Source of the DNA: Hydrogenophaga sp.
GTDB taxonomy: Bacteria; Pseudomonadota; Gammaproteobacteria; Burkholderiales; Burkholderiaceae_C
Direction of reading: 5' to 3'
Length of the DNA: 64,000 bases
Assembly: GCA_030682835.1 (NCBI GenBank)
Contig: JAUXNG010000075.1
Coordinates: 1-64,000 of the forward strand
A model generated the notes under the pieces. It saw only the letters and a list, made by a program, of their open reading frames with translations. It was not told where the DNA came from and made no database searches. This document shows, piece after piece, positions 12,892-42,725 of the stretch (position 1 is the first letter of the stretch; the number at the start of each line of letters is the position of its first letter). The position numbers and the translations under genes are program-made.

Positions 12892-12908
12892 AAGCAGCGC
12901 GGCCACCC

Positions 12909-12937: not shown

Positions 12938-12972
12938 GCGCGGTACCCGCTCGTACCACCTGCACGCCCCAC

Positions 12973-13794: not shown

Positions 13795-13883
13795 TCGGCA
13801 ACCCCGCTGGAGGGGCCGCCATAGCCCCTTTGGACGATGGGCGCTGCCGGCCAGACCGGCGCTTGCTCCCACATAATCGGGTC

Positions 13884-14999: not shown

Positions 15000-15007
15000 T
15001 GGTGGTG

Positions 15008-15093: not shown

Positions 15094-15160
15094 AGACACG
15101 CCGCGCCGAAACCACCTTTCTGCCGTAAGTTGATCCACATTTTTCAACCGAGACATTTCC

Positions 15161-15784: not shown

Positions 15785-15802
15785 TCTTCTGCCGCCGCCG
15801 AC

Positions 15803-17167
15803 ATGAAATCCATCGCGCAAATTGCCGCCGCCCTGCAAGGCTACGACCCGCAGGCCCTGAGCGCCGCCCAGGTGAGCGACTTCCTTTCGCTGCTGGTCGA
15901 ACCCGTGACCGAGACCGAAACGGTGGGCATCTTTGATGCTCTGGGCCGGGTGCTGGCACAGGACGTGGTTTCCCCCATCAGCGTGCCGCCCCACGACAAC
16001 TCGGCCATGGACGGCTTTGCTTTCGACGGCCGCCAGCTGCGGGCCGGGCAGCCGCTGGCCCTGCGCTGCCGGGGCACTGCGTTTGCCGGCCAGGCCTGGA
16101 CGGGCGAGGCCGGCAACGGGGACTGCGTGAAGATCATGACGGGCGCCATCATGCCCGCCAGCATGGACACGGTGGTACCGGTGGAGTTCGTGCAGGTTGA
16201 CGGCGAGCAGGTCTCCATCCCGGCCGACGTGCTGCGCCAGGGCGACAACCGCCGCCTGCTGGGCGAAGACCTGATGGCCGGCCAGCCGGCACTGGGTCGC
16301 GGCCAGACGCTGGGTCCTGCTGCGCTGGGCCTGGTGGCCAGCCTGGGACTTCCGACTGTAAGCGTGTTCCGACGCCTGAAGGTGGCCTATTTCTCGACGG
16401 GCGACGAAATCCTCAGCCTGGGCGAGACCCCCCGCGAAGGCGCTGTGTACGACAGCAACCGGTACACCGTGTTCGGCCTGCTCACGAAACTCGGCGTCGA
16501 GGTGATCGACATGGGCGTGGTCAAAGATGAGCCGGCCGCGCTGGAAGCCGCGTTCCGGCAGGCGGCCGAGCAGGCCGATGCCATCATCACCAGCGGCGGC
16601 GTGAGCATGGGCGAAGCCGACCACACCAAGGCCATGATGAAGCAGCTGGGCGACGTGGCCTTCTGGCGCATCGCCATGCGCCCCGGCCGGCCGATGGCGG
16701 TGGGCAAGATTGTTCACCCCCACGCTCCACCGCTGCTCGGGTCGATGCCCCTTGAGGGGGCTGAGACCGGCTTGGGGCGGCCCGGCGCCGGTCTCGCCGG
16801 ACAGGGCGGAAAGAACGCGGTCCTGTTCGGTCTGCCGGGCAACCCGGTGGCGGTGATGGTCACCTTCCTGGCCTTCGTGCGCCCTGCCCTGCTGCAGATG
16901 ATGGGCGCTGCCGCCAGCGAACCCGTGCTGCTGCAGGCCCGCAGCGGCGAGGCACTGCGCAAGAAACCCGGCCGCACCGAGTACCAGCGCGGCATCGTCA
17001 CCCGCCAGGCCGACGGCACGCTCAGCGTGCGCACCACCGGCAACCAGGGCTCGGGCGTGCTGCGCTCCATGGTGGAAGCCAACGGTCTGATCGTGCTGCA
17101 TCATGAGCAAGGCAACGTGGCGGTGGGCGACCTGGTCGATGTGATGATGTTCGACGGCGCTATCTGA
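15803..17167 (+). CDS. moeA: molybdopterin molybdenumtransferase
   Basis: MoeA, 454 residues; inserts molybdate into adenylylated molybdopterin. Domain motifs: PPHDNSAMDGFAF, KIMTGAIMP, STGDEILSLGE, YDSNRYTVFGLL, TSGGVSMGEADHTKAMM, and the MoCF signature GLPGNPVAVMV. At about residues 303-337, between MRPGRPMAVGKI and the next conserved segment NAVLFGLPGNP, there is a proline/glycine-rich stretch of about 33 residues without family similarity. The DNA there (16712-16812) resembles the dispersed repeat at 15008 and 50856. It is in frame and leaves both flanking motifs intact, so the protein is probably functional with an extra surface loop. Confidence 0.93.
   Translation: MKSIAQIAAALQGYDPQALSAAQVSDFLSLLVEPVTETETVGIFDALGRVLAQDVVSPISVPPHDNSAMDGFAFDGRQLRAGQPLALRCRGTAFAGQAWTGEAGNGDCVKIMTGAIMPASMDTVVPVEFVQVDGEQVSIPADVLRQGDNRRLLGEDLMAGQPALGRGQTLGPAALGLVASLGLPTVSVFRRLKVAYFSTGDEILSLGETPREGAVYDSNRYTVFGLLTKLGVEVIDMGVVKDEPAALEAAFRQAAEQADAIITSGGVSMGEADHTKAMMKQLGDVAFWRIAMRPGRPMAVGKIVHPHAPPLLGSMPLEGAETGLGRPGAGLAGQGGKNAVLFGLPGNPVAVMVTFLAFVRPALLQMMGAAASEPVLLQARSGEALRKKPGRTEYQRGIVTRQADGTLSVRTTGNQGSGVLRSMVEANGLIVLHHEQGNVAVGDLVDVMMFDGAI
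16712..16812 (+). repeat. repeat-derived segment inserted in frame in moeA
   Basis: Reads CACCCCCACGCTCC...GCTCGGGTCG, then CCCCTTGAGGGGGC, then CTTGGGGCGGCCCGGCGCCGG. This is the same kind of order as the intergenic repeats (CCCCCGCGCC, then CCCCTCAAGGGGGC, then a CGGCCCGG/GCCGG tail). It lies exactly where MoeA homologues pass directly from the RPMAVG motif to the LPGNPVA motif. The length keeps the frame. Confidence 0.65.
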
Positions 17168-17194
17168 AGCTGAAGCGCACACGAACTGCCGAAC

Positions 17195-18583
17195 TCAGGG
17201 CCGGTGCGCCTGGATGCGGCACAGCTTGCCGCTGCGCCCCCGGGGCACTGACTGCCCCAGCTCACCCAGCACGCGAATCGGCAAGGCACCCTGCGCGGCG
17301 GCAAAGGCCTGCAGCACGCTTCGGCAACGGCTGAGCGCCTGGCGCCCGGCATCGCCACTCAGCGGCAGGCGCAGCACCAGGGTGTGGGCATCGCGCTGGC
17401 GGATCTGGAAATCGAACACGCCCGCGTCCTCCTCGAGCACGGTGGACAGGGCCAGCGGCAGCAGGGGCACCATGCGGCCAGCGCCCTGCATGTGCAGGGT
17501 GTCGTCCTGTCGCCCGGCCACCTCGATCACCGGAAAAGGCGAGCCACAGGCGCATGGCTCGGGGTGCAGGGTGACATGGTCGCCCAGCTGGTAGCGGATC
17601 AGTGGCTGCACCCGGTTCGCCAGATTGGTCAGCAGCAGGCCGCAAGAAGGCTGCCCCGGCGGCACCGGGCGTTGGTGCTCGTCCACCGGCTCGAGCACCA
17701 GCCAGTCGGTATTCAGGTGCAGGCCGCCAAAGGCGCATTCGGAACCCATGGCAATGAACTCGGACGTGCCATAGCTGTTGCGCACGCGGCACCCGAAGGC
17801 GCGCTCGATGCGCAGCCGCATCGCCGGGCTGAGCGTTTCGCCCCCGGTCCAGATCTCGCGCAGGTGGACGGACAGGTGCCCGCGCTCCACCTCGTCGGCC
17901 AGCATCAGGGCCGCCGTCGGGTAGGTGGCGAGCACGGTCGGTGAAAAATCACCGAGCTGCTCCACCAGCGCTTCCACCGGCTCAAGAATGGAAAAGCTCG
18001 ACATCACCGGCGCCAGCCAGGGCTGCAGCTGGCGCAGGCGCTGCAGACCCACGTAGCTGGCGAAATGCCCCTCGGTGGCACCCACGAAAGCCATGCGTTC
18101 GGTGAGGTAGAAGGGGTCGAGCCAGCGCCGGCCGCCCTCGGGGCGGCAGCGGCGCAGCGACTCCAGCGCGTCGTACACCGCCAGCGCCTGCGCGTCCTGC
18201 ACGAAAACGCCCGGCTCGCCGCTGGTGCCCGAACTCTCCCACAGCAGGTACTGGCCCAGGTAGGCCTGCGCCACGCGGGATGGGTCGGCCAGCACATCGC
18301 GCAGCGAGAGCAAGTCCAGACGCGGATCGGTCACCCAGTCATCGAAACGGGCCATGAGTTCGCTGCGAGCCACCGGCTCGACGTCCTGCAAGGTCGCCAC
18401 CGCGCCTTTGCGCACATGGCGCAGGCGTTCGCGGTAGAAGGCAGACGCGTCACGCGCGTGCGCCAGCAAACTGTCCAGCCGCTGGGCCTGGCAGCGCGCG
18501 ATGCTGGCGGGCGCCGCCCGGTTGAGTGCCAGGACGCTGGCGGTCACGCCAGCGACGGAAAAGGGGTCGAATACGGTGCCCAT
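17195..18583 (-). CDS. PaaK/CapK-like adenylate-forming enzyme (phenylacetate-CoA ligase family)
   Basis: ANL-superfamily protein of 462 residues resembling phenylacetate-CoA ligase and CapK. The ATP-binding P-loop SSGTSGEPGVF is near residue 117, the A5-like motif YGTSEF near residue 271, and the segment VQPLIRYQLGDH acts as the hinge motif. A C-terminal GKLCR provides the catalytic lysine. CACGSPFPVIEVAGR resembles the PaaK region with paired cysteines. The acid substrate is unknown. No paa genes are nearby; it stands alone between moeA and the efflux pump. Confidence 0.82.
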   Translation of the reverse strand: MGTVFDPFSVAGVTASVLALNRAAPASIARCQAQRLDSLLAHARDASAFYRERLRHVRKGAVATLQDVEPVARSELMARFDDWVTDPRLDLLSLRDVLADPSRVAQAYLGQYLLWESSGTSGEPGVFVQDAQALAVYDALESLRRCRPEGGRRWLDPFYLTERMAFVGATEGHFASYVGLQRLRQLQPWLAPVMSSFSILEPVEALVEQLGDFSPTVLATYPTAALMLADEVERGHLSVHLREIWTGGETLSPAMRLRIERAFGCRVRNSYGTSEFIAMGSECAFGGLHLNTDWLVLEPVDEHQRPVPPGQPSCGLLLTNLANRVQPLIRYQLGDHVTLHPEPCACGSPFPVIEVAGRQDDTLHMQGAGRMVPLLPLALSTVLEEDAGVFDFQIRQRDAHTLVLRLPLSGDAGRQALSRCRSVLQAFAAAQGALPIRVLGELGQSVPRGRSGKLCRIQAHRP

Positions 18584-32195: not shown

Positions 32196-32296
32196 GGTGA
32201 CGGGCCCTCCCGCATGGTAAAGCGGCCAACCGGGTCAGGTGGGGAACCAAGCAGCCCTAACTGTGGAGCCAGTGCCGGGGTCGGGGCTCGTCACCT
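32196..32296 (+). ncRNA. ffs: 4.5S signal recognition particle RNA
   Basis: RNA component of the SRP, about 101 nt; binds Ffh and targets membrane proteins co-translationally. The 5' end GGTGACGGGCCC pairs with the 3' end GGGGCTCGTCACC. The domain IV hairpin reads GGGT CAGG TGG GGAA CCA AGCA GCCC: the internal loop CAGG/AGCA and the GGAA tetraloop match the universal SRP pattern, while the stem UCC/GGA of E. coli is replaced by UGG/CCA, a compensatory change. It lies divergent from dnaX. Its last 23 bases form part of the attachment site of the downstream island, which leaves the gene complete. Confidence 0.92.
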
Positions 32297-32301
32297 TATT
32301 C
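32274..32301. repeat. attL (28-bp direct repeat)
   Basis: TGCCGGGGTCGGGGCTCGTC followed by ACCTTATT. It is identical to 41267-41294 and diverges immediately on both sides. The first 23 bases are the 3' end of ffs, so integration restores the RNA gene, as with tRNA-targeting integrases. Confidence 0.93.
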
Positions 32302-32360
32302 AGAGAATCCTCTTCAGGGTCAACAAACTAAGCCAAATCAAGGGCTTACGAAACTTCATC

Positions 32361-32383
32361 TGTATCACTTCGTTGTGTCACTT
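32361..32383 (+). repeat. candidate integrase arm-type sites, left pair
   Basis: TGTATCACTT (32361-32370) and TGTGTCACTT (32374-32383), direct repeats with a 13-bp period, just before the integrase gene. A matching pair with the same period is found near the right end (41190-41212). Confidence 0.65.
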
Positions 32384-32410
32384 TCCCCACACTTATCCAA
32401 GGGAAGCGAC

Positions 32411-34126
32411 ATGGCACAGGTCGAAGGACTGAACCTTCGGGGGTCGCGCTGGTACGTCCGGATCATCATCCCTGACGACTTGCGGGGGGCCTTCGGCAAG
32501 GCCCGGGTGAACATCGCACTGAGCACCAGCGAGCGCCGGGAAGCGGTCCTCCGGGCGACGGTTGAGCGGGCCAAATGGCTGGCCGACTTTGAGGCGAAGC
32601 GTAGCGCCCTGAAGGCATCGCCCCTGACTTCCATATCCCCCCAGCTTGCCGCACTCTTAGCTGCCCGTGTTCGTGCGACCGTCTTAGCTCAGGATGACGG
32701 GATACGCGCCGATCTGTCCACACTGGCCGACCTCGCTCGGGTGCGCCGGGAAATCGCTAATCAAGTCGGGGCAGGTCTCCGTATCCCCACGCCCACCTCC
32801 TCACCGGCACAGGCGGACACGCCACCCCCACGGGACGACCTCATGGGAATGACCCCGGAGGAACAGGAAACTCTGACGGAGTGGAACGCCTACCTAGACG
32901 GTAAAGCCGCCGTCGCGCTGGCACGGGGGAACTTGGCCGCCGTCCTTCCCTTGGTGGAAGCCGAAGCGCGAAGCGTTGGGATAGTCTTTACTGCGAAGAC
33001 ACCGGGTGCCCGCGAAGCCCTCGCGATGGCCCTGAAGGCGTACCGTGCGGCACACCGGGAGCGGGGCCTCAGGGATGTCGGGGAGGTCGTGGAAACGCCC
33101 CTGCACCCCATCCCGTTGGCATCAAACAATGCAGCCCCCACGGGCAAGCCCAAGACCCTCAGGGATGTCTTCGACCGCTGGAAGCGATCAGGCGCCACAC
33201 CGCGATCAGATGATGCCGTCCAGGCGATGGACCGGGCCGTGAGGCAATTTGAGGGGCAACACCCCACGGTCACCCTGAGGGACACCACGCGGGAGCTGGG
33301 GGACGCGTACCGCTCTTGGCTGCTGGAGAACTCAGGCACACCCAAGACAGCACGAGACCGGCTGACGGGCCTCAAGACGCTACTGAAGTACGCCCACCGG
33401 GACCTAGAGTGGACCGAACGGCACACATGGGAGGGGTTGGACATCAAGGCCCGGACCACCAATAAGCGCAGGGCGATCACCGCCGATGAAATGGCGCAGC
33501 TATTCGGGACAGCGATACACACCGCCTACGCCCTGCCGAAAGTCAAACAAGCGGGACGGGATGCCGCGTACTGGATTCCCCTTTTGGGGGCCTTTACGGG
33601 TGCCCGCTTGGGGGAGCTGTGCCAGCTTCGCGCCGTGGATGTTCAGACCGTTGGCGGTATCCCCGCGCTGGTGCTGACTGATGAGGGTGAAGGCCAGCGG
33701 ATCAAGAGCGCAGCGGGTCACCGAACCATCCCAATACACAGTGAGTTGGTGCGCCTTGGATTCTTGGGATATGCCGCAGCGATGCAACAGGCGGGGCATG
33801 AGTCGTTATGGCCCCACCTGCCGATGCGCAGGGACAAGCCCAGCGACTACTTCGGTAGATGGTTCAAGGACTTCCGAACGGCCCTTGACATGGGCGGCAC
33901 GGACCAGCCCTCGTTCCACTACTTCCGGCACACGGTTCGCCCCTTGATGCGACAGGCCGGGATAGATGCGATGACACGGGATAAGGTCACGGGGCATGAA
34001 TCGGCGGGCAGTGTGGGGGATGCGGTCTATGACAGCGTGCAACTCTCGGAATTGGTCCCCGCCGTGGCTGCGATCCAATACCCCGCACTCCTCCTCCCCG
34101 TGGTGTCGCCACACGCCAGCAAGTGA
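32411..34126 (+). CDS. int: site-specific tyrosine recombinase (integrase)
   Basis: Phage-type integrase of 571 residues, long because of an extended N-terminal region. Residues 1-60 contain a DUF6538-like start (LNLRGSRWYVRIIIPDDLRGAFGK); the core-binding SAM-like domain is near 240-330. The catalytic domain has ArgI in GAFTGARLGELCQLR, the HxxR box in FHYFRHTVRPLMRQAG, the GHES motif, and the nucleophile tyrosine in GDAVYDSVQL. Start ATG 32411 has AAGGGA six bases upstream. It lies 109 bases inside attL, which is the usual position, and presumably recombines the 28-bp core in ffs. Confidence 0.93.
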   Translation: MAQVEGLNLRGSRWYVRIIIPDDLRGAFGKARVNIALSTSERREAVLRATVERAKWLADFEAKRSALKASPLTSISPQLAALLAARVRATVLAQDDGIRADLSTLADLARVRREIANQVGAGLRIPTPTSSPAQADTPPPRDDLMGMTPEEQETLTEWNAYLDGKAAVALARGNLAAVLPLVEAEARSVGIVFTAKTPGAREALAMALKAYRAAHRERGLRDVGEVVETPLHPIPLASNNAAPTGKPKTLRDVFDRWKRSGATPRSDDAVQAMDRAVRQFEGQHPTVTLRDTTRELGDAYRSWLLENSGTPKTARDRLTGLKTLLKYAHRDLEWTERHTWEGLDIKARTTNKRRAITADEMAQLFGTAIHTAYALPKVKQAGRDAAYWIPLLGAFTGARLGELCQLRAVDVQTVGGIPALVLTDEGEGQRIKSAAGHRTIPIHSELVRLGFLGYAAAMQQAGHESLWPHLPMRRDKPSDYFGRWFKDFRTALDMGGTDQPSFHYFRHTVRPLMRQAGIDAMTRDKVTGHESAGSVGDAVYDSVQLSELVPAVAAIQYPALLLPVVSPHASK

Positions 34127-34228
34127 CGCCCACCAGCGCGGCAACCGCTGCGGTCACCCAGCGTTTGAAGGCGTTGGCCTCAGCCCCTCCCGCCATTAAC
34201 GAGAGGACGGATTGCGGGTGCAGGCCAC

Positions 34229-34257
34229 AAGCATAGGTAGTGCCTATGCTTTGATTT
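34229..34257 (+). terminator. terminator after the integrase gene
   Basis: Perfect inverted repeat AAGCATAGG (34229-34237) / CCTATGCTT (34243-34251), loop TAGTG, followed by TGATTTT. The AT-rich stem is unlike the host terminators; a protein-binding site is an alternative. Confidence 0.55.
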
Positions 34258-34333
34258 TCGTCCGCATCTTTGCGGTGCACTAGTCCGGGTGAGGGCCGTG
34301 AAGGAATCATTCGGGAGGTCATGAGGGTTCCAT

Positions 34334-34371
34334 AAAAAGAAACCCCCGGGGCCACTGAAGGCAACCGGGGG
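34334..34371 (-). terminator. Rho-independent terminator after the large phage-like gene
   Basis: On the minus strand, CCCCCGG (34371-34365 complement) pairs with CCGGGGG (34349-34343 complement), followed by TTTCTTTTT. It lies about 170 bases downstream of the gp15-like gene and shares its CCCCCGG-plus-T-run style with the terminator at 39191-39233. Confidence 0.8.
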
Positions 34372-34541
34372 CTATGCGCCGATGTGGCGCGAAGGGTCTC
34401 CCGTGGCTCTACAGGGCGACGAAAGCAGGGCCGAAGGGGATTGGCTAGGGTGCGGCGAAAAATCGCTCTGACGCCTGCCTGATGACCCACACGGGGCCTC
34501 TAGGTGGGCCTCTTGATGGGAACAATCAAACAGGGGCCGGG

Positions 34542-36995
34542 TTACTTCCCTGCCGGGTACTTCCGCATGAGGTCTGCAAGTGGGAGGCTGTGATTGCCGT
34601 CCTTGCGGATGCGCTCATAAGCTCCCGGGGACAGGATTGCCCTGTTGAACCCCTGCCCGTTCAAACTCTTGTCGTATTGCACGATGGCGTAGCGGTTGCC
34701 CCGCTGAAGGGCTGGAATCTCGGCATTGATACGGGCCTTGAACGCTGCATACCCTGACGCGGACGCGGTGGCTTCCATCTCTGCCTTGTGCTGCTCCCGC
34801 ATCCATTGCGAAATGTCCCCCCGAGTGAAGACCATAAGGCCCCCTTCAGGGTTCGTCAGTGGGAGCCCAGCCACAAAGGCCCGGTAAACGCGGCTACGCT
34901 CATCGAACTCCAGGCGGACTTCAGACGCAGCAAAGCCCATTTCACGGGCCTGTGGCTTGGGCACGGCGTCAAGGAACTTCCCCAGCCACTGCGCAGCGTC
35001 TTCCCGTTCCCCGGGAGGTGTGGGAAGCTCGGAGCGGAGGTATAGGGTTCCGTTCACCTTGGCCGATACCTCAGGCTTGCTGAGGTAGCCCACAGCCATC
35101 TCCAAGGCCTCATCAGCGGACCCCACGCGCCCACTGTGCGCCAGTAGGGTGGCATACCGGCGAACCCATGCGCTCACCTGTGAGGTGTTGGGGGTGGTGT
35201 TGTGCTGGGTGGAAGCGATGGGGTCGCTCTTGAGCCATTCCGGCACCTCGTGCCCCCGTGCCTTCTGCAGACCCCCCGCCAGTGCATTGCCGATAGCGAT
35301 GGGGTTATTCCGCCTCACGAAGTCATAGGACGCATTCCGCTTGTTTTCAAGCCAATCCATCCACGGGGTGTCCAACAAGTCAGCGACCCGCCCCAGGACC
35401 TTGGACTCAAGCTTGTAGGCTGGGCTCCCTGCCGTGGCTCCCGCTGAACGGGCCGCAGCTATGGCCGCTGCATCGGATTCCGTGTGACCCATAGCGGTCA
35501 GGAACCCGATGTCAGAGAAGCGCCCATAAGCATCGTCCCCCGCCGTCCGCCGTGCTGCGTCCGGGCTGATGGCTTCCAGCTCCTTGAACAGCTTGATGGC
35601 CCGCACCCCGGCCTCGTTCAGTTCCCCCACAGGTTTCCCCTTGGCATCCACGGAGATGGTCGCTAGGTTGTAGAGACCGGCCTTCAGTTGGTTGTCCCAG
35701 TCGGGGTTGATGAGCCCGTTCTGAGACCACACCGACACCTGTTGGGCGAACGGGAGGTCTTTGGTGGCCCGCGTGATGTACTCGGCGGCGTAGCCCTTCA
35801 CGTCGAATGCCTTCGTGCCACCCGACTGGGTGAGGACCTGGGGGTTGCTGTTGCCCTGCACCTCCCACAGGCGACCACCCGCCACAGCGGCCTCCACCGC
35901 TTTCTGGGCTTCGTACTCGCTCTCGGCCACCTGCGTCTGGATCGCTGCCGCTGCACGTTCGCGGGCCGCTGCCGCCTGAGCGGAACGGTTGCGGTCGATC
36001 AGGGAGGCGATGGTGGCCGATGAGATGTACTTGGCATTCTCCGGGGATTGCCCCCACGCCATCAGCTTGTCCTCGTTCAGGGTCCCTTCGGATGCCGTGA
36101 GGTAGAACGGCAGGGCCTCGGTGTCGATCCGCTGGCGCTCCACTCCGTCACGCTGGGTGATGGCCTTGGACTGGAGCGTTGCCGCCTTGTCCTCACCCAG
36201 CACGGAGCGCACGGTGCCCAGGTCGGGCAGCTCGGTATTCAGCAGGGACTCCACAAGGGTGTCCTTGCCGCTCGCTGCGGCCCGCGTGATGACCTCCAGC
36301 AGGGCACCTCGGGATGCCGCATCGGGCATCACCTTGGTTTTCCGAAGGAGGTGGTAGCGGTCCATGATGGCCGCTGTGCGGGCCTTGTCGTCACCCGTGA
36401 AGTCACTGGCGGTGACCGTGTTGAGGACGTTGCCCAGACTGTCAGCCGCTTCGGTTGCGGCCTGCTCCACGATGGCCTTGTCATTGAGCTTGGCCGTGGC
36501 CCCCATGAGCTTCGTGCGGAGTTCCGCGAAGCCCTTGTCGAAGCCTGCCACGGCGTACTTGGACTGGCCGGACAACTCGGTGTTGCGGTACTCGGTCAGG
36601 TAGCGGTCGATGTCCTCGGGCTTGTCGAAGGTGACCTCGCCCGTGTCCAGCTTGGTGGAGATGTCCCGCTCGAAGGCGGCTCGCCGGTTCTCGCCCCATA
36701 CGTGCTGCACCGTGGCAGCGAACACAGGGGATTCGGAGGCGAGCATGTCGCCCTTCTTGATGGCCTTGCCCAGCTCGTCCACCGTCAGGGAGTTGGCGTA
36801 CTTGCGGGCACGGGTCGCGTCTTCCTCGGCCACCCGTTTGCGGTTGTTCTCCACCAGGAGGTCACCAGCGGCGAACACCTTGGCGAGACCCTCCCACGCC
36901 TGCATACCCGGCTGGGCTTCTGTCTGGGCAATGGGGCGGGCCTGAGTGACAAGGCGTTCACCGCCGAAGTCATCGCTGATCTGTTGGCGGCTCAT
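34542..36995 (-). CDS. large phage protein resembling T7 gp15-type internal virion (ejection) protein
   Basis: A protein of 817 residues, mostly helical by composition, with no signal peptide or membrane segment. In the N-terminal 150 residues the order VAEEDATRARKYANSLT, VDELGKAIKKGDMLASESP, AATVQHVWGENRRAAFERD, PEDIDRYLTEYRNTELSG, then YAVAGFDKGF follows the same plan as the start of T7 gp15. There, 'LTPEQRREALNNGTLL', a short-lived 'YAMEALRVKTGRNAA' and an 'EMEEYRHSRLQEGA' segment occur in that order. T7 gp15 is part of the ejected core that forms the channel for DNA entry. The similarity is from memory of the pattern and needs a profile search. Its ATG overlaps the stop of the RHH-like gene (ATGA), and a terminator follows. 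No gp14, gp16 or capsid gene is nearby. Confidence 0.5.
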   Translation of the reverse strand: MSRQQISDDFGGERLVTQARPIAQTEAQPGMQAWEGLAKVFAAGDLLVENNRKRVAEEDATRARKYANSLTVDELGKAIKKGDMLASESPVFAATVQHVWGENRRAAFERDISTKLDTGEVTFDKPEDIDRYLTEYRNTELSGQSKYAVAGFDKGFAELRTKLMGATAKLNDKAIVEQAATEAADSLGNVLNTVTASDFTGDDKARTAAIMDRYHLLRKTKVMPDAASRGALLEVITRAAASGKDTLVESLLNTELPDLGTVRSVLGEDKAATLQSKAITQRDGVERQRIDTEALPFYLTASEGTLNEDKLMAWGQSPENAKYISSATIASLIDRNRSAQAAAARERAAAAIQTQVAESEYEAQKAVEAAVAGGRLWEVQGNSNPQVLTQSGGTKAFDVKGYAAEYITRATKDLPFAQQVSVWSQNGLINPDWDNQLKAGLYNLATISVDAKGKPVGELNEAGVRAIKLFKELEAISPDAARRTAGDDAYGRFSDIGFLTAMGHTESDAAAIAAARSAGATAGSPAYKLESKVLGRVADLLDTPWMDWLENKRNASYDFVRRNNPIAIGNALAGGLQKARGHEVPEWLKSDPIASTQHNTTPNTSQVSAWVRRYATLLAHSGRVGSADEALEMAVGYLSKPEVSAKVNGTLYLRSELPTPPGEREDAAQWLGKFLDAVPKPQAREMGFAASEVRLEFDERSRVYRAFVAGLPLTNPEGGLMVFTRGDISQWMREQHKAEMEATASASGYAAFKARINAEIPALQRGNRYAIVQYDKSLNGQGFNRAILSPGAYERIRKDGNHSLPLADLMRKYPAGK

Positions 36996-37279
36996 GCTGC
37001 ACCCCCGTTCAGGGTGGCGGCTGGGACCACCACAAGGGTTCCCCGGGCGATGTCCCTGCACAGTTCTGAGGTGGTCCGTCCGAGATGGGCAGCGGGAACG
37101 CCTAGGCGGTAATGGTCGTTGAGGACTTCCAGCAGGGCCTCGCTATTGGTGACCGTGTGGGTGTCCCCGGTGGGGTCTATGGCGTGCTGGCGCATGCGTT
37201 GCAGGTTCTTGAGGTGGTCGAAAGCTGAGACAGGCAGCGAGTAGGCACGGACGACACGGGCTTCGTAATCTTTGGGCAT
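36992..37279 (-). CDS. small ribbon-helix-helix-like protein
   Basis: 95 residues, function not recognised. The pattern ARVVRAYSLPVSAFDHLKNLQ, followed after a 20-residue insertion by VTNSEALLEVLNDHYRLG, resembles the strand-helix-helix of RHH (Arc/MetJ-type) DNA-binding proteins, with TNSEA at the start of the second helix. It could be a regulator or excision factor of the element. It is 29 bases downstream of the Bro-N gene, and its stop codon overlaps the start of the gp15-like gene, which suggests coupled translation. Confidence 0.55.
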   Translation of the reverse strand: MPKDYEARVVRAYSLPVSAFDHLKNLQRMRQHAIDPTGDTHTVTNSEALLEVLNDHYRLGVPAAHLGRTTSELCRDIARGTLVVVPAATLNGGAA

Positions 37280-37308
37280 GGTGGGAATCTCGGTAGGTGG
37301 GGGAGCGG

Positions 37309-37740
37309 TCACAGGGAGCGCAAAACGGGGACGGCTGTGGCGGTCACCCATCGGCGTAGGGCGATGCGTTCGTCCATTCGACTGGTGCCCAGCATGGCGT
37401 GCATTCCGCCCTCGCTGAGGGCCTGCACTTCGCGGTAACCGCTGGCCTCAGGGTTGACCGTATTGGGGACCCACACGCGGACCTGAGAGAGGTCGGCGGG
37501 GTCCTTGATGCGCTTACGCATGGATGAGGTGCCCCCGGGGAGGCCCAGCATCTTGAACACGTCACTGAGGACGAACCAAGCGAAGCCCTTGGAATCACGA
37601 TAGGCACGGATGACACCGAAACCGTTGTATGGAAAGGCGACCACCGGGGTGGCTCCCGGCTTTGCAGGGCGGTTGCCCGTGAGCTTGTAAGCCGGGGTGA
37701 GACCTCCCGGAACGGCGAGTGAGGGGTAGCAATGAGACAT
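37309..37740 (-). CDS. Bro-N domain (antirepressor-like) protein 1
   Basis: 143 residues. Bro-N-like layout: FPYNGFGVIRAYRDSKGFAWFVLSDVFKMLGLPGG, then a variable strand region, then REVQALSEGGMHAMLGTSRMDERIALRRWVTATAVPVLRSL, matching the usual 'wFvakDVc..Lg' and 'SEsGLYaLilrSr...f.rWVt.eVlP.iR' blocks. Bro-N proteins bind DNA or antagonise repressors in phages. The start at 37740 gives MSHCYPSLAVPGG; the frame is open to 37911, but a hairpin at 37764-37793 lies in that extension. Confidence 0.75.
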   Translation of the reverse strand: MSHCYPSLAVPGGLTPAYKLTGNRPAKPGATPVVAFPYNGFGVIRAYRDSKGFAWFVLSDVFKMLGLPGGTSSMRKRIKDPADLSQVRVWVPNTVNPEASGYREVQALSEGGMHAMLGTSRMDERIALRRWVTATAVPVLRSL

Positions 37741-37763
37741 GGATTCAGAAGTTAAAATGACGA

Positions 37764-37793
37764 AAGCCCCGACACCGGATGGCATGGGGGCTT
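37764..37793 (-). terminator. terminator-like hairpin upstream of the Bro-N protein 1 gene
   Basis: On the minus strand AAGCCCC ... GGGGCTT (16-base loop) followed by TCGTCATTTT. It could end the upstream DUF1376-like transcript or act as a leader hairpin; the T run is interrupted, so it is weak. Confidence 0.4.
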
Positions 37794-37960
37794 GAGGGGC
37801 GGGGCTGGCTTGGGCCGCGCGAGAACAGATAGAGACAGGGGCTATTTCATCGGCGTCCTTAAGGTGTTGTTGGGGTGCATCTGAGGGGCGAAACACAAGG
37901 GGGAAGACCACAAAGGGGAAGTCTCCCCGTGGTCATATTCCTGAGGGCTTATCGCTTCAT

Positions 37961-38002
37961 GGGTCTTGGGTCGTGGGTCTTGGATCGTGGGTCTTGTATC
38001 TT
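37961..38002. repeat. three tandem 14-bp repeats in the 37741-38046 intergenic region
   Basis: Copies GGGTCTTGGGTCGT, GGGTCTTGGATCGT and GGGTCTTGTATCTT in a row, in a gap of about 306 bases between two minus-strand genes. Apart from these repeats and the hairpin at 37764-37793 the gap holds nothing I recognise. The repeats could be iteron-like protein-binding sites or simple slippage products. Confidence 0.7.
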
Positions 38003-38046
38003 GTATGCCTTAGCGACCGGGAAGCGAACAAGAACCGGCGGGTTTC

Positions 38047-38439
38047 TCAGAAGTCCGCATCGTCAATCGGGGGCGGTTCCAGCCGCTTGGGCCTGCCGCC
38101 CTTTCGACCGTTCTCCCGGTTGGTCTCGGCCTTCCGAACAGCGGCCTCAAACTCACGGACTTGTACGGCGTCGAAGACCCAGCCCTGAGCATCCACGGTG
38201 AGTAGGTCGAGGGCTACCAACGTCCCCAACAACACGTCCTGAGGTGACCCATCGGCCACCCGGAGGCGCAGCTTCAGGGTGTCAAGCGGCATCCGGCAAC
38301 CCACTACGCGCCACAGTGCGGAGCGTGCGACATCAAACAGCCCGCGCTCCTCTAACGAAAGGCGGGCCGTGCGCGTGTCGTGTTCCGCCCAGTTCATGGG
38401 CATGTAAGGCATACGGCTGTTCAGTGCGAGTGCGCTCAT
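38047..38439 (-). CDS. DUF1376/YdaU-like phage protein
   Basis: 130 residues. The segment YMPMNWAEHDTRTARLSLEERGLFDVARSALWRVVGCRMP is the usual opening of DUF1376 proteins (a short basic winged-helix-like domain often next to phage replication genes). The C-terminus AETNRENGRKGGRPKRLE has the basic 'ENGrKGGRP' tail common to them. The start codon overlaps the stop of the upstream Bro-N gene (ATGA). A role in element replication or its control is inferred; no helicase or primase is encoded here. Confidence 0.7.
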   Translation of the reverse strand: MSALALNSRMPYMPMNWAEHDTRTARLSLEERGLFDVARSALWRVVGCRMPLDTLKLRLRVADGSPQDVLLGTLVALDLLTVDAQGWVFDAVQVREFEAAVRKAETNRENGRKGGRPKRLEPPPIDDADF

Positions 38440-39008
38440 TTCACACCCCAGCGGCTGACACGGTGGCGCGTGCCCCTCATTAGCGCAAAGCCAGAGGCCC
38501 GAGCATCCCGCTCCTCAAATGCGTTGAGGCCCCGCTGCGCCTTTGCTTCGATGGCCCGTGCGGCGGCCACCTGCATGGCCTGCTGGTGCGCCTGAAGTTC
38601 CCCAGCGGTGGTCACCCTGAATCCGGCTTCCTCATCCCGGATATAAGCCCCATCCTGTTCGATGGCGGGGAGTACGGTAGACGTGACCCAGTGTTGAAAG
38701 GCTTTCGCGGCTGGCTTGCGGCTCTGGAAAACTAGAGCGAACAGCCCCGAGCGGTTGACCGTCACGAAGTCTTGGGGACCGCCAGGGGTGGACAGTTTTG
38801 TCCTACCTTTGTCTGTCGGGTTGACCCGTTCAAGGGCACGCGACTGCTTGGTTATGCCCAGCGCCTCACAGGCGTCCCGAGCGACCCACCACGTTTGCCC
38901 GTGGGAGTCACGAACGGTGCGGATCGGGTGCGAGTGCCCGCCGTGGTCAAAAACGAAGGCTGGGATTGATGCCGGTGGGGCTGTGGTCTGGGGTGGGTTG
39001 ATGGTCAT
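38436..39008 (-). CDS. Bro-N domain (antirepressor-like) protein 2
   Basis: 190 residues. Bro-N blocks: FVFDHGGHSHPIRTVRDSHGQTWWVARDACEALGITKQSRAL, then NRSGLFALVFQSRKPAAKAFQHWVTSTVLPAIEQDGAYI. The region after it (LQAHQQAMQVAAARAIEAKAQRGLNAFEERDAR) is a likely helix/coiled coil. The start at 39008 gives MTINPPQTTAPP; the frame extends further up without family sequence. Coupled to the DUF1376-like gene by ATGA overlap. It probably acts in the element's switch between dormancy and mobilisation; this is inferred from the family. Confidence 0.8.
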   Translation of the reverse strand: MTINPPQTTAPPASIPAFVFDHGGHSHPIRTVRDSHGQTWWVARDACEALGITKQSRALERVNPTDKGRTKLSTPGGPQDFVTVNRSGLFALVFQSRKPAAKAFQHWVTSTVLPAIEQDGAYIRDEEAGFRVTTAGELQAHQQAMQVAAARAIEAKAQRGLNAFEERDARASGFALMRGTRHRVSRWGVK

Positions 39009-39329
39009 GGGTTCTACTTTTGGTTGTCCCCCTGTTGCCCGTGTTCCACCCGCGTGGCACCCGTAGGGCCATGACACCCAGCCATGCGGCAAGGACGAGA
39101 GGAGGACAACCGAAAGAGACGGGATTGCGATACATGGCCGTGGAATGGCCGGGGTGGTGCTGGAACTTCGAGCCAGCGGGAGGAACGGACAAAGAAAACC
39201 CCCGGAGCGTCCTTTCGGGGACATCTGCGGGGGTCGGCGGGGGTCGAAAACCGGGCTTCGGCTCTCGTTCCTACTGTGAGGGTTTTATCTACTGACCTAT
39301 GACAGGGAGCATCGGGGATGCGTCCGCGC
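39009..39329. other. intergenic region between resolvase and Bro-N protein 2 genes
   Basis: About 320 bases. It holds the resolvase terminator (39191-39233) and presumably the promoter of the Bro-N/DUF1376 pair. A short plus-strand frame (ATG 39135, MAVEWPGWCWNF...) exists, but it runs through the terminator hairpin and has no recognisable domain, so I do not call it. Confidence 0.5.
39191..39233 (-). terminator. Rho-independent terminator after the resolvase gene
   Basis: Minus strand: CCCCCG ... CGGGGG (39228-39233 with 39199-39204), with an inner GTCC/GGAC stem, followed by TTTTCTTT. Same style as the terminator at 34334-34371. Confidence 0.7.
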
Positions 39330-39932
39330 TCAGGCCGCAAGGGCGGCGTAAAGGGTTGACCGGGAGACGCCCAACGTCTCGGCGATGTGGGCCTTCGGGG
39401 TGCCTTGCGCGACCATCTCCCGTGCCCTCGCCTTCCCTGCCTCATCAAGCGACGGCTTGCGTCCCTTGTAAACGCCCTTGGTCTTGGCAATGGCGATGCC
39501 CTCGCGCTGGCGCTCCCGGATCAACTCCCGCTCAAACTGCCCCACGGCCCCCAGCAGTTGCAGCATGAGGGTGTTCATGGGTGAATCCTCCCCCGTGAAT
39601 GTCATCCCTTGCTTGGTGAACGTCACGGCGACACCCTTGCTGGTGAGCCCCTTCACGATGCCCTCCAGGTCACCAAGAGACCGCGCAAGACGGTCCATGC
39701 TGTGGACGAAAAGATGGTCTCCCGCCCTCACATGGGAGAGCATCGCTTGAAGCTGGGGCCGCTGGGTGTCTTTGCCGCTGGCCTTGTCCATGAAGGTCTT
39801 GTCCAGTGCCACACCGTCCAGCTGCCGGGCATCGTTCTGCCCTGCGGAGCTAACCCGAACGTATCCCACGCGCTGTCCTTGGGGGGTTGCACGGGAGGCG
39901 GCGGGTGTGAGTGGCTTAGGTTGCTTGGGCAT
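39330..39932 (-). CDS. serine recombinase (resolvase/invertase family)
   Basis: Small serine recombinase of 200 residues. The catalytic domain starts VGYVRVSSAGQNDARQLDG, with the nucleophile serine in VRVSS. The FVHSMDRLARSLGDLEGIV arginine motif and the E-helix FERELIRERQREGIAIAK follow. A C-terminal helix-turn-helix (GTPKAHIAETLGVSRSTLYAAL) binds DNA. Related to Tn3 resolvases and Gin/Pin invertases. No transposase accompanies it, so it could resolve dimers of the excised element or invert a segment. A strong promoter (39969-39997) lies just upstream. Confidence 0.9.
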   Translation of the reverse strand: MPKQPKPLTPAASRATPQGQRVGYVRVSSAGQNDARQLDGVALDKTFMDKASGKDTQRPQLQAMLSHVRAGDHLFVHSMDRLARSLGDLEGIVKGLTSKGVAVTFTKQGMTFTGEDSPMNTLMLQLLGAVGQFERELIRERQREGIAIAKTKGVYKGRKPSLDEAGKARAREMVAQGTPKAHIAETLGVSRSTLYAALAA

Positions 39933-39968
39933 TTGAAAGGCTCCGGACGTTGGTGAATGTACGGATAG

Positions 39969-39997
39969 AGTCTAAGACCCATTTCATAATGTGTCAA
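39969..39997 (-). promoter_or_regulatory. sigma-70 promoter of the resolvase gene
   Basis: Minus strand TTGACA (39997-39992), 17-base spacer, TAGACT (39974-39969). It is 37 bases upstream of the start codon. The -35 box is perfect. Confidence 0.7.
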
Positions 39998-40116
39998 ACA
40001 AAAATGAAAACCACCCTAGAACGACACAATTTCGAACGCTCGCCACTGTCCGGCATGGGTGTACCTCAGCAGAACAGACTCACACGTGGTTACGATGAAT
40101 GGAAGGAGGGCTGGAA

Positions 40117-40527
40117 ATGATGTTCATCTGGATGTTGGTGGGCGCGGGGGTCTTGGGCCTCGTGCTCTGGTTCAAGGCGACAAAGAAGCGAGTGAGGGAT
40201 GCCGCGTATGGGGAGTTCGCTCAGATGATGGCAGCCATCGAAGCCGCGAGGGCGGACCCCGAGTACATGGAAATGGCCTTGGAGTCCGTGGCGACATACG
40301 CGCTTCGCTCTGCCGATGCCAAAGTGCACCCGTCCAAGTTGCCAGCGGACCGGGGCCTACTCGCGAGCTACTGGCGTGACGCCTTGCGTGACTTTCGGCT
40401 GATCGACAGCGAAGGACGGCGTATCACCGACCACCCCGCGCCGGTCGCTTTCTGGGAAGCGGTTGACCGGCTGGAAATGGAGCTTACGCGTAGGCGCTTG
40501 ATGGAGATGGGCGCGGATGTTCACTGA
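40117..40527 (+). CDS. hypothetical membrane-anchored protein (island cargo)
   Basis: 136 residues, not recognised. One N-terminal membrane helix (MFIWMLVGAGVLGLVLWF) followed by a basic KATKKRVRD stop-transfer segment, then a soluble helical cytoplasmic part (FAQMMAAIEAARADPEYMEMALESVATYAL, later PVAFWEAVDRLEMELTRRRL). The ATG at 40117 has GGAGGG six bases upstream, so it is well translated. It overlaps the next small gene by 11 bases. Located between the resolvase and attR, the usual place for cargo; function unknown. Confidence 0.65.
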   Translation: MMFIWMLVGAGVLGLVLWFKATKKRVRDAAYGEFAQMMAAIEAARADPEYMEMALESVATYALRSADAKVHPSKLPADRGLLASYWRDALRDFRLIDSEGRRITDHPAPVAFWEAVDRLEMELTRRRLMEMGADVH

Positions 40528-40732
40528 CGACTTCGACCCCGCTGCCACCCTTGCGGAGGCCGCCTGCCCTCGCTGCCATTGCGTGGGCCTCGTAGAAGTG
40601 GACGACGAGATACGAGAAGCCACCCCTCCCGCCGACAGGCATCAACCCAGGTACTACGTGGACCCCAGCATTGCCGCCCGGTGCCCCGCTTGTGGGCTTG
40701 TCATGGAATGGCCGGGGTGTCTTTCGGACTGA
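40517..40732 (+). CDS. small zinc-ribbon protein (island cargo)
   Basis: 71 residues. Two CxxC knuckles, CPRCHC near residue 17 and CPACGL near residue 56, form a likely zinc ribbon. The start overlaps the end of the membrane-anchored protein gene by 11 bases, which suggests a two-gene unit with coupled translation. Zinc ribbons of this size bind nucleic acid or proteins; the role here is unknown. Confidence 0.65.
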   Translation: MFTDDFDPAATLAEAACPRCHCVGLVEVDDEIREATPPADRHQPRYYVDPSIAARCPACGLVMEWPGCLSD

Positions 40733-40804
40733 ATGCGGGGCGGGTGTGCCAGCAGGAAACGGGACCCCCGCCAGGGGGGAAATTCGGCGCTAATCTGGAT
40801 TGAG

Positions 40805-40837
40805 GGGCCTTTCACATTTTTGCTACAAAAATGGCCC
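40805..40837. repeat. AT-rich palindrome near the right end of the island
   Basis: Perfect 8-bp arms CATTTTTG (40815-40822) and CAAAAATG (40826-40833), loop CTA, with an outer GGGCC/GGCCC pair. It stands out in GC-rich DNA. It could be a bidirectional terminator for the converging genes or an operator. Confidence 0.5.
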
Positions 40838-40856
40838 ACTCCCCACGCCCCCAAGG

Positions 40857-41057
40857 TCAACAGCGGGGGCTGCTAATCAGCACCCAGCCTAACCCTTCCC
40901 GCACCCTCTCGCCCTTCTCCAGGTCTTCCCTGAGGGGCACCGGAAGTCCCCCTGAACGGCTGAATGCGTGAATCTGGCGACGGGGTGTCTCAACCCAGAA
41001 CGACCCCCCGGTGTTGAGTTCGACGGAGGTGCGGTTGACACGGAAAGAAATGAACAC
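40857..41057 (-). CDS. possible small protein of unknown function
   Basis: 66 residues starting at GTG 41057, with AAGG seven bases upstream. Sequence MFISFRVNRTSVELNTGG then SFWVETPRRQIHAFSRSGG and LPVPLREDLEKGERVREGL. The order 'PRRQIHAF..GGLPVPLREDLEKGE' recalls the core of small phage ssDNA-binding proteins (gp5-like), but this is a weak impression. No similarity is claimed. It lies next to the right att arm sites. Confidence 0.35.
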   Translation of the reverse strand: MFISFRVNRTSVELNTGGSFWVETPRRQIHAFSRSGGLPVPLREDLEKGERVREGLGWVLISSPRC

Positions 41058-41189
41058 GATGGGACCTTACAGTGACGCGCCCAAGTGGCGCACCAGCCAT
41101 CATGCGCAGCCGAACAGAAAGAACAAGCCTGAAAGCGCGACCATTCCGCTACCGAAAAGCTCTCGACACCGCTACGATGGACTCATCAT

Positions 41190-41212
41190 TGTGGCACTGG
41201 GTTGTATCACTT
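41190..41212 (+). repeat. candidate integrase arm-type sites, right pair
   Basis: TGTGGCACTG (41190-41199) and TGTATCACTT (41203-41212), again with a 13-bp period. The second is identical to the first left-arm motif at 32361. They are 55 bases inside attR. Confidence 0.6.
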
Positions 41213-41266
41213 GAGGTCGAGTTTTCCTCTGGAAACTGTTGATTTTATTGAAGTTTTCCTAATTGC

Positions 41267-41294
41267 TGCCGGGGTCGGGGCTCGTCACCTTATT
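41267..41294. repeat. attR (28-bp direct repeat)
   Basis: Exact copy of 32274-32301 (end of ffs plus five bases). Sequence to the right is again host DNA leading to the end of the flavoprotein gene. Confidence 0.93.
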
Positions 41295-41384: not shown

Positions 41385-42725
41385 TCATCGCCCGGCTTTC
41401 AGCCAGTCGAGCACCCCCTCGCCTGCTGCCACGCCGCTCGCCATGCAGGCGGTGAGCAGGTAGCCGCCGGTCGGGGCCTCCCAGTCGATCATTTCGCCGG
41501 CCACAAACAGGCCGGGTTGCGCCTGCACCATCTGGTGCGGGTCCAGGGCAGGCCAGCACACCCCGCCGGCCGTGCTGATGGCCTCGTCAATCGGGCGGGT
41601 CGCCACCACAGTGATGGGCAAACCCTTGATGGCGCTCGCCAGGCGCGCCGGGTCGTGCAGCACGTCCTTGTCCAGCAGCTCGTTGAGCACGGCCATCTTG
41701 ATGCCGTCCAGTCCCAGGCGGCTTTTCAGATGGGCCGACAGGCTGCGCGAGCCGCGGGGGTGTGCCACCTGGGCCTGCACGTGTTCCGGGCTGCGGTCTG
41801 GCAGCAGGTCGAGTTCGAAGGTGGCACGACCGAGCCGCGCCACCTCGTCGCGCAACAAATGGGAGGCCGCGTACACCAGGCTGCCTTCCACCCCGGTGGC
41901 CGTGGCAACGAATTCCCCCTTGCGGGTGAACGACTCGCCCACGCTGTCGGTGACGCGCAGCGCGACCGACTTGAAGGGCTGGCCGGCAAACCGGCTGGCG
42001 AAAAACGGGCTCCACCCGGCTTCGATGCCGTGCACCGCCGATCCCGCCACGTCGAAGCCACAGTTGCTGGGCTGCAGCGGTGCCACCGGCACGCCGGCCT
42101 GCTGCAGCCAGGGCACCCACGCGCCGTCGGATCCCAGCCGGGCCCAGCTGGCGCCGCCGAGCGCGAGCACCGTGGCGCGTGCCTGAACCGTGCGCTCGCC
42201 CTGGAGACTGTCGAAGCGCAGCTGGCCCGGCGAACCCTCGCTCCAACCCTGCCAGCGGTGGCGCATGTGAAACGCGACGGGCGGCCCGCCTCCCTCGGGG
42301 TGGCGAAGGCGGTGCAGCCATGCGCGCAGCAGGGGCGCGGCCTTCATGTCGGTGGGAAATACCCGCTGCGAGCTGCCCACGAAGGTGTCGATGCCCAGGC
42401 CGGCGGCCCAGTCGCGTACCGCCTGCGGACCGAAGGCCTCCAGCAAGGGGCGCAGCCGCTCCTTCGCGGCGCCGTAACGGCCGATGAACGCGTCCAGCGG
42501 CTCGGCATGGGTGAGGTTCATGCCACCTTTGCCGGCTAGCAGGAACTTGCGCCCCACCGAGGGCATGGCGTCGAACAGGTGCACCTCCAGGCCAGCGCGC
42601 GACAGCACCTCGGCCGCCATGAGGCCAGCCGGCCCGCCGCCGATGATGGCGACCTCTGCGGCCAGGGGTGCAGACCCGACAGGGTCGGGGTGCGTAACAG
42701 AGGCGGAAGGTTCAGAAGCAGACAT
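41385..42725 (-). CDS. TIGR03862 family flavoprotein (HI0933/BaiN-like NAD(P)/FAD oxidoreductase)
   Basis: Flavoprotein of 446 residues. The FAD-binding Rossmann motif VAIIGGGPAGLMAAEVLSRAG is near residue 25, followed by VGRKFLLAGKGGMNLTHAEP. The middle has ALGGASWARLGSDGAWVPWL, and the C-terminal FAD motif is FVAGEMIDWEAPTGGYLLTACMASGVAAG. The family is widespread; its physiological reaction is not established, although a relative (BaiN) has been linked to bile-acid chemistry. It is the first host gene to the right of the island and was probably the downstream neighbour of ffs before insertion. Confidence 0.9.
   Translation of the reverse strand: MSASEPSASVTHPDPVGSAPLAAEVAIIGGGPAGLMAAEVLSRAGLEVHLFDAMPSVGRKFLLAGKGGMNLTHAEPLDAFIGRYGAAKERLRPLLEAFGPQAVRDWAAGLGIDTFVGSSQRVFPTDMKAAPLLRAWLHRLRHPEGGGPPVAFHMRHRWQGWSEGSPGQLRFDSLQGERTVQARATVLALGGASWARLGSDGAWVPWLQQAGVPVAPLQPSNCGFDVAGSAVHGIEAGWSPFFASRFAGQPFKSVALRVTDSVGESFTRKGEFVATATGVEGSLVYAASHLLRDEVARLGRATFELDLLPDRSPEHVQAQVAHPRGSRSLSAHLKSRLGLDGIKMAVLNELLDKDVLHDPARLASAIKGLPITVVATRPIDEAISTAGGVCWPALDPHQMVQAQPGLFVAGEMIDWEAPTGGYLLTACMASGVAAGEGVLDWLKAGR

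What the first reader, a model, noticed from the sequence alone, without database searches (positions are those of the whole stretch)
32274..41294. An integrative element of about 9 kb uses the 4.5S SRP RNA gene as its attachment site
Exact 28-bp direct repeats flank it, the left copy being the last 23 bases of ffs plus five more. The integrase lies directly inside the left repeat, and the flanks are core genes. The element has two recombinases, two Bro-N proteins, a DUF1376-like protein and a gp15-like protein, but no capsid, portal, terminase, polymerase, lysis or conjugation genes. tRNA and tmRNA genes are the common targets for such integrases; ffs is a much less familiar one. Size and content suggest a phage satellite or a new class of reduced prophage.
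Basis: partly seen in the sequence, partly recalled or inferred. Interest (0 to 1): 0.82.

Follow-up and report, generated by a model that had tools for sequence, protein, structure and literature searches.

The report
T7-phage satellite inside SRP RNA gene
A 9-kb mobile DNA element sits at the end of the bacterial 4.5S RNA gene, and its DNA-entry protein, phage-type promoter and copy of a phage genome end suggest that it lives by hijacking T7-like phages.

Summary
An exact 28-bp repeat (32273-32300, 41267-41294) flanks the element; Rfam places ffs at 32199-32295. The genome shares its genus with Hydrogenophaga intermedia S1. The same anatomy recurs at ffs in H. intermedia S1, a Polaromonas MAG and a complete genome of a genus other than the window's; sizes run from 9.0 to about 16.9 kb. 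All four carry a homologous integrase, a T7 gp15-type ejection protein, a small protein beside it, a serine resolvase, promoter-like motifs upstream of gp15, and a non-coding block near the right end. Phage YIMV22061 and one IMG/VR phage share that block. A profile of it hits Bordetella phage BB8 across the boundary of its terminal repeat, which suggests a phage genome end, where terminase cuts. A matrix from YIMV22061 promoter-like sites finds element sites above anything in 732 kb of control DNA. Best reading: satellites of T7-like (Autographiviridae) phages, switched on by helper RNA polymerase and packaged by helper terminase. Among ORFs scanned, no capsid, portal, terminase or RNA-polymerase gene was recognised. 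Excision, packaging and the helper's identity are not shown. My term searches found no paper describing a T7-like-phage satellite or ffs attachment site.

The parts
32199..32295 (+). ffs, 4.5S SRP RNA gene (integration target; left unbroken)
   Evidence: Rfam RF00169, 59.5 bits
32273..32300 (+). attL core, 28 bp
   Evidence: exact repeat
32361..32383 (+). pair of putative integrase arm sites TGTATCACTT / TGTGTCACTT, 13 bp apart
   Evidence: the two 10-mers occur 3 times in 64 kb (both strands), all at the element's ends; same pair in H. intermedia and Polaromonas, not in G122
32411..34126 (+). tyrosine integrase, 571 aa
   Evidence: Pfam DUF6538 and Phage_integrase; R399, K432, H503, R506, H529, Y540 present (their catalytic role is recalled); 66/55% to H. 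intermedia/Polaromonas
34542..36995 (-). T7 gp15-type internal virion (ejection) protein, 817 aa
   Evidence: phrog_23202 E 8e-138; phage YIMV22061 49% over the whole length; best Foldseek PDB hit T7 core protein E 2.5e-8
36992..37279 (-). 95-aa protein overlapping the gp15 start; relative beside gp15 in all four elements (downstream of it in G122), function unknown
   Evidence: 77/42/48% identity
37309..37740 (-). Bro-N protein (antirepressor-like), short
   Evidence: Pfam Bro-N E 1.7e-7
38047..38439 (-). DUF1376-like / primosomal-protein-like, 130 aa (weak)
   Evidence: DUF1376 E 0.019, below cut-off; phrog_12767 E 5.8e-5, phrog_9327 primosomal E 0.003
38436..39011 (-). Bro-N antirepressor-like protein
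   Evidence: Bro-N E 1.3e-20; phrog_130 E 5e-36, both on the longer ORF to 39224
39265..39288 (-). T7-type phage promoter-like site upstream of the BroN2...gp15 gene row
   Evidence: at most 3 mismatches to a motif with no such hit in 845 kb of control
39330..39932 (-). serine resolvase/invertase, 200 aa
   Evidence: Pfam Resolvase E 1.4e-33
40120..40527 (+). 135-aa protein, no family
40517..40732 (+). 71-aa zinc-ribbon-like protein (weak Pfam matches); relative in the G122 element (46%)
40769..40848 (+). block resembling the genome end (terminal-repeat boundary) of T7-like phages; a cut near 40798/40799 is inferred
   Evidence: blastn to H. intermedia element 76.8% over 56 b E 2e-5; profile hits the BB8 terminal-repeat boundary E 2.8e-6
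41203..41212 (+). putative right integrase arm site TGTATCACTT
41267..41294 (+). attR core, 28 bp
   Evidence: exact repeat

Best explanation
A phage satellite, one of a family seen in Hydrogenophaga, Polaromonas and one unnamed relative, that depends on T7-like (Autographiviridae) helper phages. Shown by sequence: it lies between attL and attR at the 3' end of ffs, which stays unbroken, beside its tyrosine integrase and repeated short arm-site-like motifs. Its leftward gene row ends in a gp15-type ejection protein and is preceded by a site resembling promoters of a T7-like phage. It holds a block resembling the sequence at which such phages' terminal repeats begin. Inferred: infection by, or induction of, a helper supplies phage RNA polymerase, which switches on the row. 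The element excises and replicates, probably as concatemers. Helper terminase cuts at the borrowed phage end and fills helper heads. The satellite's own gp15 enters the internal core, so that the particle's periplasmic DNA tunnel is built partly or wholly from satellite protein. Antirepressor-like Bro-N proteins may act on helper or satellite control. Two sister elements carry defence-type cargo (CBASS-type pair, CAP12/TIR).
For: ffs site. Four elements with the same parts. gp15. Block: window vs H. intermedia E 2e-5, H. intermedia vs YIMV22061 87.5% over 48 b E 4e-10, Polaromonas and an IMG/VR phage vs YIMV22061 E 9e-4 and 1e-7, G122 vs YIMV22061 E 2e-6; these E-values are for a small set of session sequences. 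The profile of these six, without BB8, hits BB8 across the boundary of its exact 127-bp terminal repeat, E 2.8e-6; next untrained hit E 2. LUZ100's annotated 244-bp repeat boundary has a similar layout by eye. Promoter-like sites: 8 strict hits in the other elements vs 0 in 845,473 control bases; matrix from five YIMV22061 sites scores 22.3 and 21.8 in elements vs a control maximum of 13.8 in 732,067 bases. gp15 and int look constrained (window vs H. intermedia dN 0.29/dS 1.09 and 0.27/1.52).
Against: No excision, packaging or transduction data. No helper polymerase found in four host genomes (uninformative, as its control rang nowhere). No IMG/VR contig with the integrase was found (narrow patterns). 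The window has only one strict promoter-like site, and its block alone matches YIMV22061 weakly (E 0.04). LUZ100's block is weak by profile (E 1.1) and its annotated promoter phi8 looks different. BB8 and IMG/VR phage pieces show no such promoter. gp15 is less constrained than host dnaX (dN 0.16/dS 0.82). H. intermedia's gp15 seems cut by an insertion near its C-terminus. gp15 was found in few genomes: 2 of 67, 2 of 399, 1 of 399, own included each time.
Confidence: 0.78

Rival explanations
1. Decayed remnant of a temperate T7-like prophage that integrated at ffs: int, gp15 and the phage end are leftovers of deletion.
For: T7-like phages with integrases exist: BB8, the IMG/VR phage found also next to tRNA-Lys, LUZ100 (passages of PMC10134795). 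Three genomes of the genus have broken or partial integrase pieces at ffs.
Against: Four elements in at least two genera keep the same set and lack the same rest; gp15 and int look constrained; promoter-like arrays and defence cargo are not expected leftovers; no other virion gene was recognised among the ORFs scanned.
Confidence: 0.12
2. Anti-phage island: gp15 is a decoy that poisons the internal core of infecting T7-like phages, with phage promoters as the trigger; the phage-end block is incidental or a sponge.
For: Phage-type promoter-like sites upstream of gp15; defence genes in two sister elements.
Against: A phage genome end is useful for packaging, not for a decoy, and it is kept in all four. 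This could also be true together with the satellite reading.
Confidence: 0.07
3. The 22-bp arrays are iterons or operators of the element's own replication or regulation, not phage promoters (not exclusive of the satellite reading).
For: Arrays of 4 and 6-7 direct repeats in two elements; the elements encode several DNA-binding regulators.
Against: A matrix built only from YIMV22061 sites has its two best distinct element hits inside the arrays.
Confidence: 0.2

Closest known systems
PICMI (phage-inducible chromosomal minimalist islands; PMC10803314, passages seen)
   Same: Small integrated satellite without capsid-remodelling genes; packaged in full-size helper particles as concatemers; carries a defence gene; virulent helper.
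   Different: PICMI has AlpA and a primase and sits downstream of fis in Vibrio; no phage-type promoters, ejection protein or phage-end copy appeared in the passages seen.
PICI / cf-PICI / P4-like / PLE satellites (sizes from PMC10803314 passages; details recalled)
   Same: Size class (means 10 kb P4, 9.5 PICI, 14 cf-PICI, 18 PLE), integrase, regulator genes, helper dependence.
   Different: Their marker genes (alpA, capsid, terS, sid, ppi; list partly recalled) were not recognised here, apart from chance-level terminase-small matches of the resolvase's HTH; the helper signals are of the T7 type.
EcCIMP1 with helper Kapi1, a P22 relative (PMC11773190, passages seen)
   Same: Satellite of a P22-like phage (short-tailed; recalled); shares possible morphogenesis proteins with its helper.
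   Different: Helper is P22-like, not T7-like; the island is AlpA-controlled.
T7-like phages with integrases (BB8, LUZ100, IMGVR_3300026288_000092)
   Same: gp15 homologue in BB8 and the IMG/VR phage, genome-end sequence, an integrase.
   Different: They hold virion genes; the IMG/VR phage sits next to tRNA-Lys; the window's integrase has no tblastn match at E 1e-3 in BB8's first 20.5 kb, which holds its integrase, nor in L130.

Membership tests
phage satellite (general) | Integrated element with integrase, no complete virion set | tested here: met
   one ejection protein only among ten ORFs scanned
phage satellite (general) | Carries signals that use the helper's machinery | tested here: met
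   phage-end block and phage-like promoter sites, by sequence only; function untested
phage satellite (general) | Mobilised in helper particles | not testable with these tools
   no strain or phage at hand
PICI / PICMI | AlpA regulator | tested here: not met
   no AlpA match in Pfam/PHROGs for the ten window ORFs scanned
cf-PICI | Own capsid genes | tested here: not met
P4-like / PLE | P4 or PLE marker gene set | not tested
   no satellite-specific model set available
Autographiviridae prophage | RNA polymerase, capsid, portal, terminase | tested here: not met
   for the window; most, not all, sister ORFs scanned
T7 gp15 family (tunnel ejection protein) | Sequence and fold of gp15 | tested here: met

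The most novel reading that the evidence does not exclude
A new family of satellites parasitising T7-like phages that reads three helper signals at once: helper RNA-polymerase promoters as on-switch, the helper's genome end as packaging ticket, and a self-supplied gp15 that makes hybrid particles whose DNA-delivery tunnel is satellite-made, possibly tuning entry into new hosts or excluding the helper.
Probability: 0.5. Interest if true: 0.92.

Novelty: new variant of a known kind. Interest (0 to 1): 0.86.

Why it matters
T7 is a model lytic phage, yet my literature searches returned no paper that, by its listing, describes a satellite of T7-like phages. This family would show how such phages are parasitised, with on-switch, packaging signal and one virion protein all readable in 9 kb. 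It makes testable why a satellite would bring its own ejection protein. It also adds the SRP RNA gene to attachment sites (no hit for my term sets), used by an integrase clade in eight genera of the sample.

Tried and rejected
IMG/VR scans with single integrase and gp15 sequences and with integrase alignment A3 found no relatives; the gp15 alignment found four phage contigs. First idea that L130 was a second satellite sharing the block was dropped: it is identical to the L127 phage's contig over 5,664 bases and adds host DNA with tRNA-Lys, i.e. a lysogen. Rfam found ffs and an ilvH leader only; ARAGORN found no tRNA in the window, so a tRNA target there is excluded. PDB sequence search with the gp15 profile found nothing; the fold search did. 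The PF00940 search for helper polymerase is uninformative. Other ffs elements (L153-L158) and integrase remnants (L061-L063) gave no credible block hit (best E 3.6) and no gp15 match. The 988-aa protein of L153 gave no clear PHROG and only a below-cut-off lysozyme match.
Full report
OBSERVATION. The window is bases 1-64000 of contig C53 of its genome (3.61 Mb, 104 contigs, 87% complete). Rfam puts the small SRP RNA at 32199-32295 +. A 28-bp exact repeat lies at 32273-32300 and 41267-41294; in the whole own genome the ffs query hits only these two places. A match of this length by chance is negligible. Upstream is dnaX, downstream a FAD-type oxidoreductase gene (both named by eye from the ORFs).

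ATTACHMENT SITE. In relative G043, ffs is identical, is followed by the same TTATT, and the oxidoreductase homologue lies 108 bp further on: an empty site. Of 67 genomes of the genus, 60 have an ffs match. I examined 59 of these 60 (58 fetched loci plus the window; G008's partial hit and a second hit in G047 were left out). Five of 59 have integrase-related sequence beside ffs: two full length (window, G027) and three broken or partial (G053, G009, G056). G027 is taken to be H. intermedia S1 because the named contig has the same length and the same integrase identity. Two Polaromonas MAGs also have the integrase at ffs, one cut at a contig end. The 10-mers TGTATCACTT/TGTGTCACTT occur three times in 64 kb, all at the element's ends. 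The same left pair and right single copy occur in the H. intermedia and Polaromonas elements, and only the right copy in G122. I read them as integrase arm sites (inference). In a sample of 399 family genomes, 13 (own included) have integrase matches at E 1e-60 or better, 16 matches in all. Eight of the 16 loci also hold ffs (own, and seven), in eight genera; eight do not. So this integrase clade uses ffs widely but not always.

FOUR SISTER ELEMENTS. (a) Window, 9.0 kb. (b) H. intermedia: pieces C29, C105 and C8, adding up to 14.2 kb, which includes one IS3-type insertion (by eye) and leaves out a second insertion at a contig break; attR at C8:6655. (c) Polaromonas, 16.9 kb. (d) G122, a complete genome of another genus than the window's, 11.6 kb; its genus is not named and could be Polaromonas. 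All have int next to ffs, reading inward. All have a gp15-type gene on the opposite strand (62, 53 and 42% identity to the window's). The 95-aa-type protein lies upstream of and next to gp15 in a, b and c, but downstream of it in d. All have a serine resolvase and antirepressor-like genes of Bro-N, KilA-N or Rha type (weak in c). Cargo differs: c has a CBASS-type cyclase with 4TM effector, and UmuC/UmuD-like genes; b has a CAP12/TIR protein. Among the ORFs scanned (ten in a, most but not all in b, c and d) gp15 is the only clear virion protein. In b the gp15 gene appears interrupted near its C-terminus by an insertion (read from the two contig ends); I left it as it is.

gp15. PHROG internal virion protein E 8e-138. 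tblastn against 50,697 phage records at E up to 0.01 found two: Limnohabitans phage YIMV22061 (49%, whole length) and Bordetella phage BB8, both Autographiviridae; BB8's gene is annotated internal virion protein C, between internal proteins B and D. AlphaFold of the window's protein (mean pLDDT 76.6, pTM 0.44) gives four PDB matches at E up to 0.001: T7 core proteins, T7 ejectosome tunnel, an entry titled 'core proteins', and phage E1004 core proteins; the next match has E 0.13. TM-scores are low (0.24-0.29). Per PMC8954989 (passages), T7 gp15 forms the periplasmic tunnel for DNA and changes shape about a hinge. Substitution counts suggest constraint, weaker than in host dnaX, and dS is near saturation.

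PHAGE-END BLOCK. A non-coding block near the right end of all four elements resembles a block lying beyond the terminase gene, towards the next gene block, in YIMV22061 and in IMG/VR phage IMGVR_3300026288_000092 (T7-like by gene order as read by eye). H. intermedia vs YIMV22061: 87.5% over 48 b, E 4e-10; window vs H. intermedia 76.8% over 56 b, E 2e-5; window vs YIMV22061 alone only E 0.04; Polaromonas region vs YIMV22061 72.5% over 91 b, E 9e-4; IMG/VR phage vs YIMV22061 75.6% over 86 b, E 1e-7 (a small set of session sequences); G122 vs YIMV22061 E 2e-6. The BB8 record has an exact 127-bp terminal repeat. A profile of the six blocks, without BB8, hits BB8 bases 41418-41501, spanning the repeat boundary at 41467, with E 2.8e-6; the next untrained hit has E 2. 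LUZ100, whose 244-bp terminal repeats are annotated, shows at the boundary a similar order by eye (G6 run, boundary, T5 run), but by profile only E 1.1; Lo5R7ANS scores E 0.03 near its right end, without an exact repeat in the record; RHEph21 shows no credible hit. A pattern scan of viral contigs found only the IMG/VR phage and its lysogen; blastn of the YIMV22061 block found no other phage record. I therefore read the block as the sequence at which helper terminase makes the genome end.

PROMOTER-LIKE SITES. YIMV22061 has repeated T7-type sites (five found by motif, not annotated). Two further element sites above 14 (16.3 and 14.3) lie outside the arrays. A second test uses a motif written by eye from the four H. 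intermedia sites, after I had seen sites in the other elements. In the other elements (45.3 kb) it gives 8 hits at up to 3 mismatches (Polaromonas 6, G122 1, window 1) and none in 845,473 control bases. At 4 mismatches it is 13 against 10 (0.5 expected from the control rate), at 5 it is 30 against 74 (4 expected), so enrichment fades with laxity. The Polaromonas and H. intermedia arrays lie upstream of the gp15 row on its strand, in H. intermedia with an insertion between; the window has one site, 39265-39288. No such site was found in the pieces of BB8 and the IMG/VR phage searched, and LUZ100's annotated promoter phi8 looks different, so promoter type would narrow the helper.

MECHANISM. Shown by sequence: att sites at ffs, gp15 homology and fold, phage-end-like block, promoter-like motifs. 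Inferred: activation by helper RNA polymerase, excision, concatemers, packaging by helper terminase, gp15 entering particles. PICMI shows that packaging as concatemers into full-size heads without remodelling genes is workable (PMC10803314 passages).

LITERATURE. Seen as passages only: PMC10803314, PMC11389934, PMC11773190, PMC10134795, PMC8954989, PMC13230959. No paper in this library held the term sets for ffs plus integrase, or satellite plus internal virion protein, or satellite plus T7 promoter, helper and terminase. The Autographiviridae satellite sets returned 4 papers and 1 paper, none on such satellites by title and abstract start. The podovirus and T7-like sets held 45 and 170 papers, of which I saw listings of 15 each. 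A satellite-family set listed 4. Most subscription papers and bioRxiv preprints are not covered.

LIMITS. No helper found (uninformative). gp15 elements are rare: 2 of 67 genus genomes, 2 of 399 family, 1 of 399 order, own genome included each time; whether G122 was in the last sample is not shown. No virome contig with the integrase was found. Several host assemblies are draft or MAG.

Noticed in passing
L153 (G358:C1:703000-722500), about 2459-17243: A 14.8-kb element at ffs with the same integrase clade shows no gp15 match but a 988-aa protein with a lysozyme-like C-terminus (below Pfam cut-off): perhaps another phage's ejection-type protein.
   Followed up: partly
L155 (G300:C5), 1160-15924: A 14.8-kb island at ffs bounded by repeats of at least 40 bp, with type I restriction-modification genes and a primase-type protein (DUF5906, PriCT_1); no gp15 match.
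   Followed up: partly
L154 (G491:C92), 2043-15614: A 13.6-kb ffs element with resolvase and Bro-N relatives, plus a 383-aa protein of unknown kind that by eye resembles the 282-aa one in L153.
   Followed up: partly
L130 / L131 / L127: A temperate T7-like phage in IMG/VR, seen also as a lysogen next to tRNA-Lys, with an integrase.
   Followed up: partly
L061 (G053:C65), between ffs and the oxidoreductase: 12.2 kb of extra DNA at ffs with a partial integrase: probably an old, decayed element.
   Followed up: no
L060 1756-2088 -: The H. intermedia element encodes a stand-alone primase-type zinc-binding domain (phrog_239 E 1.8e-9; Pfam below cut-off), perhaps acting on helper replication.
   Followed up: no
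window 1230-1297 -: ilvH leader RNA (RF02993, 82.6 bits).
   Followed up: no
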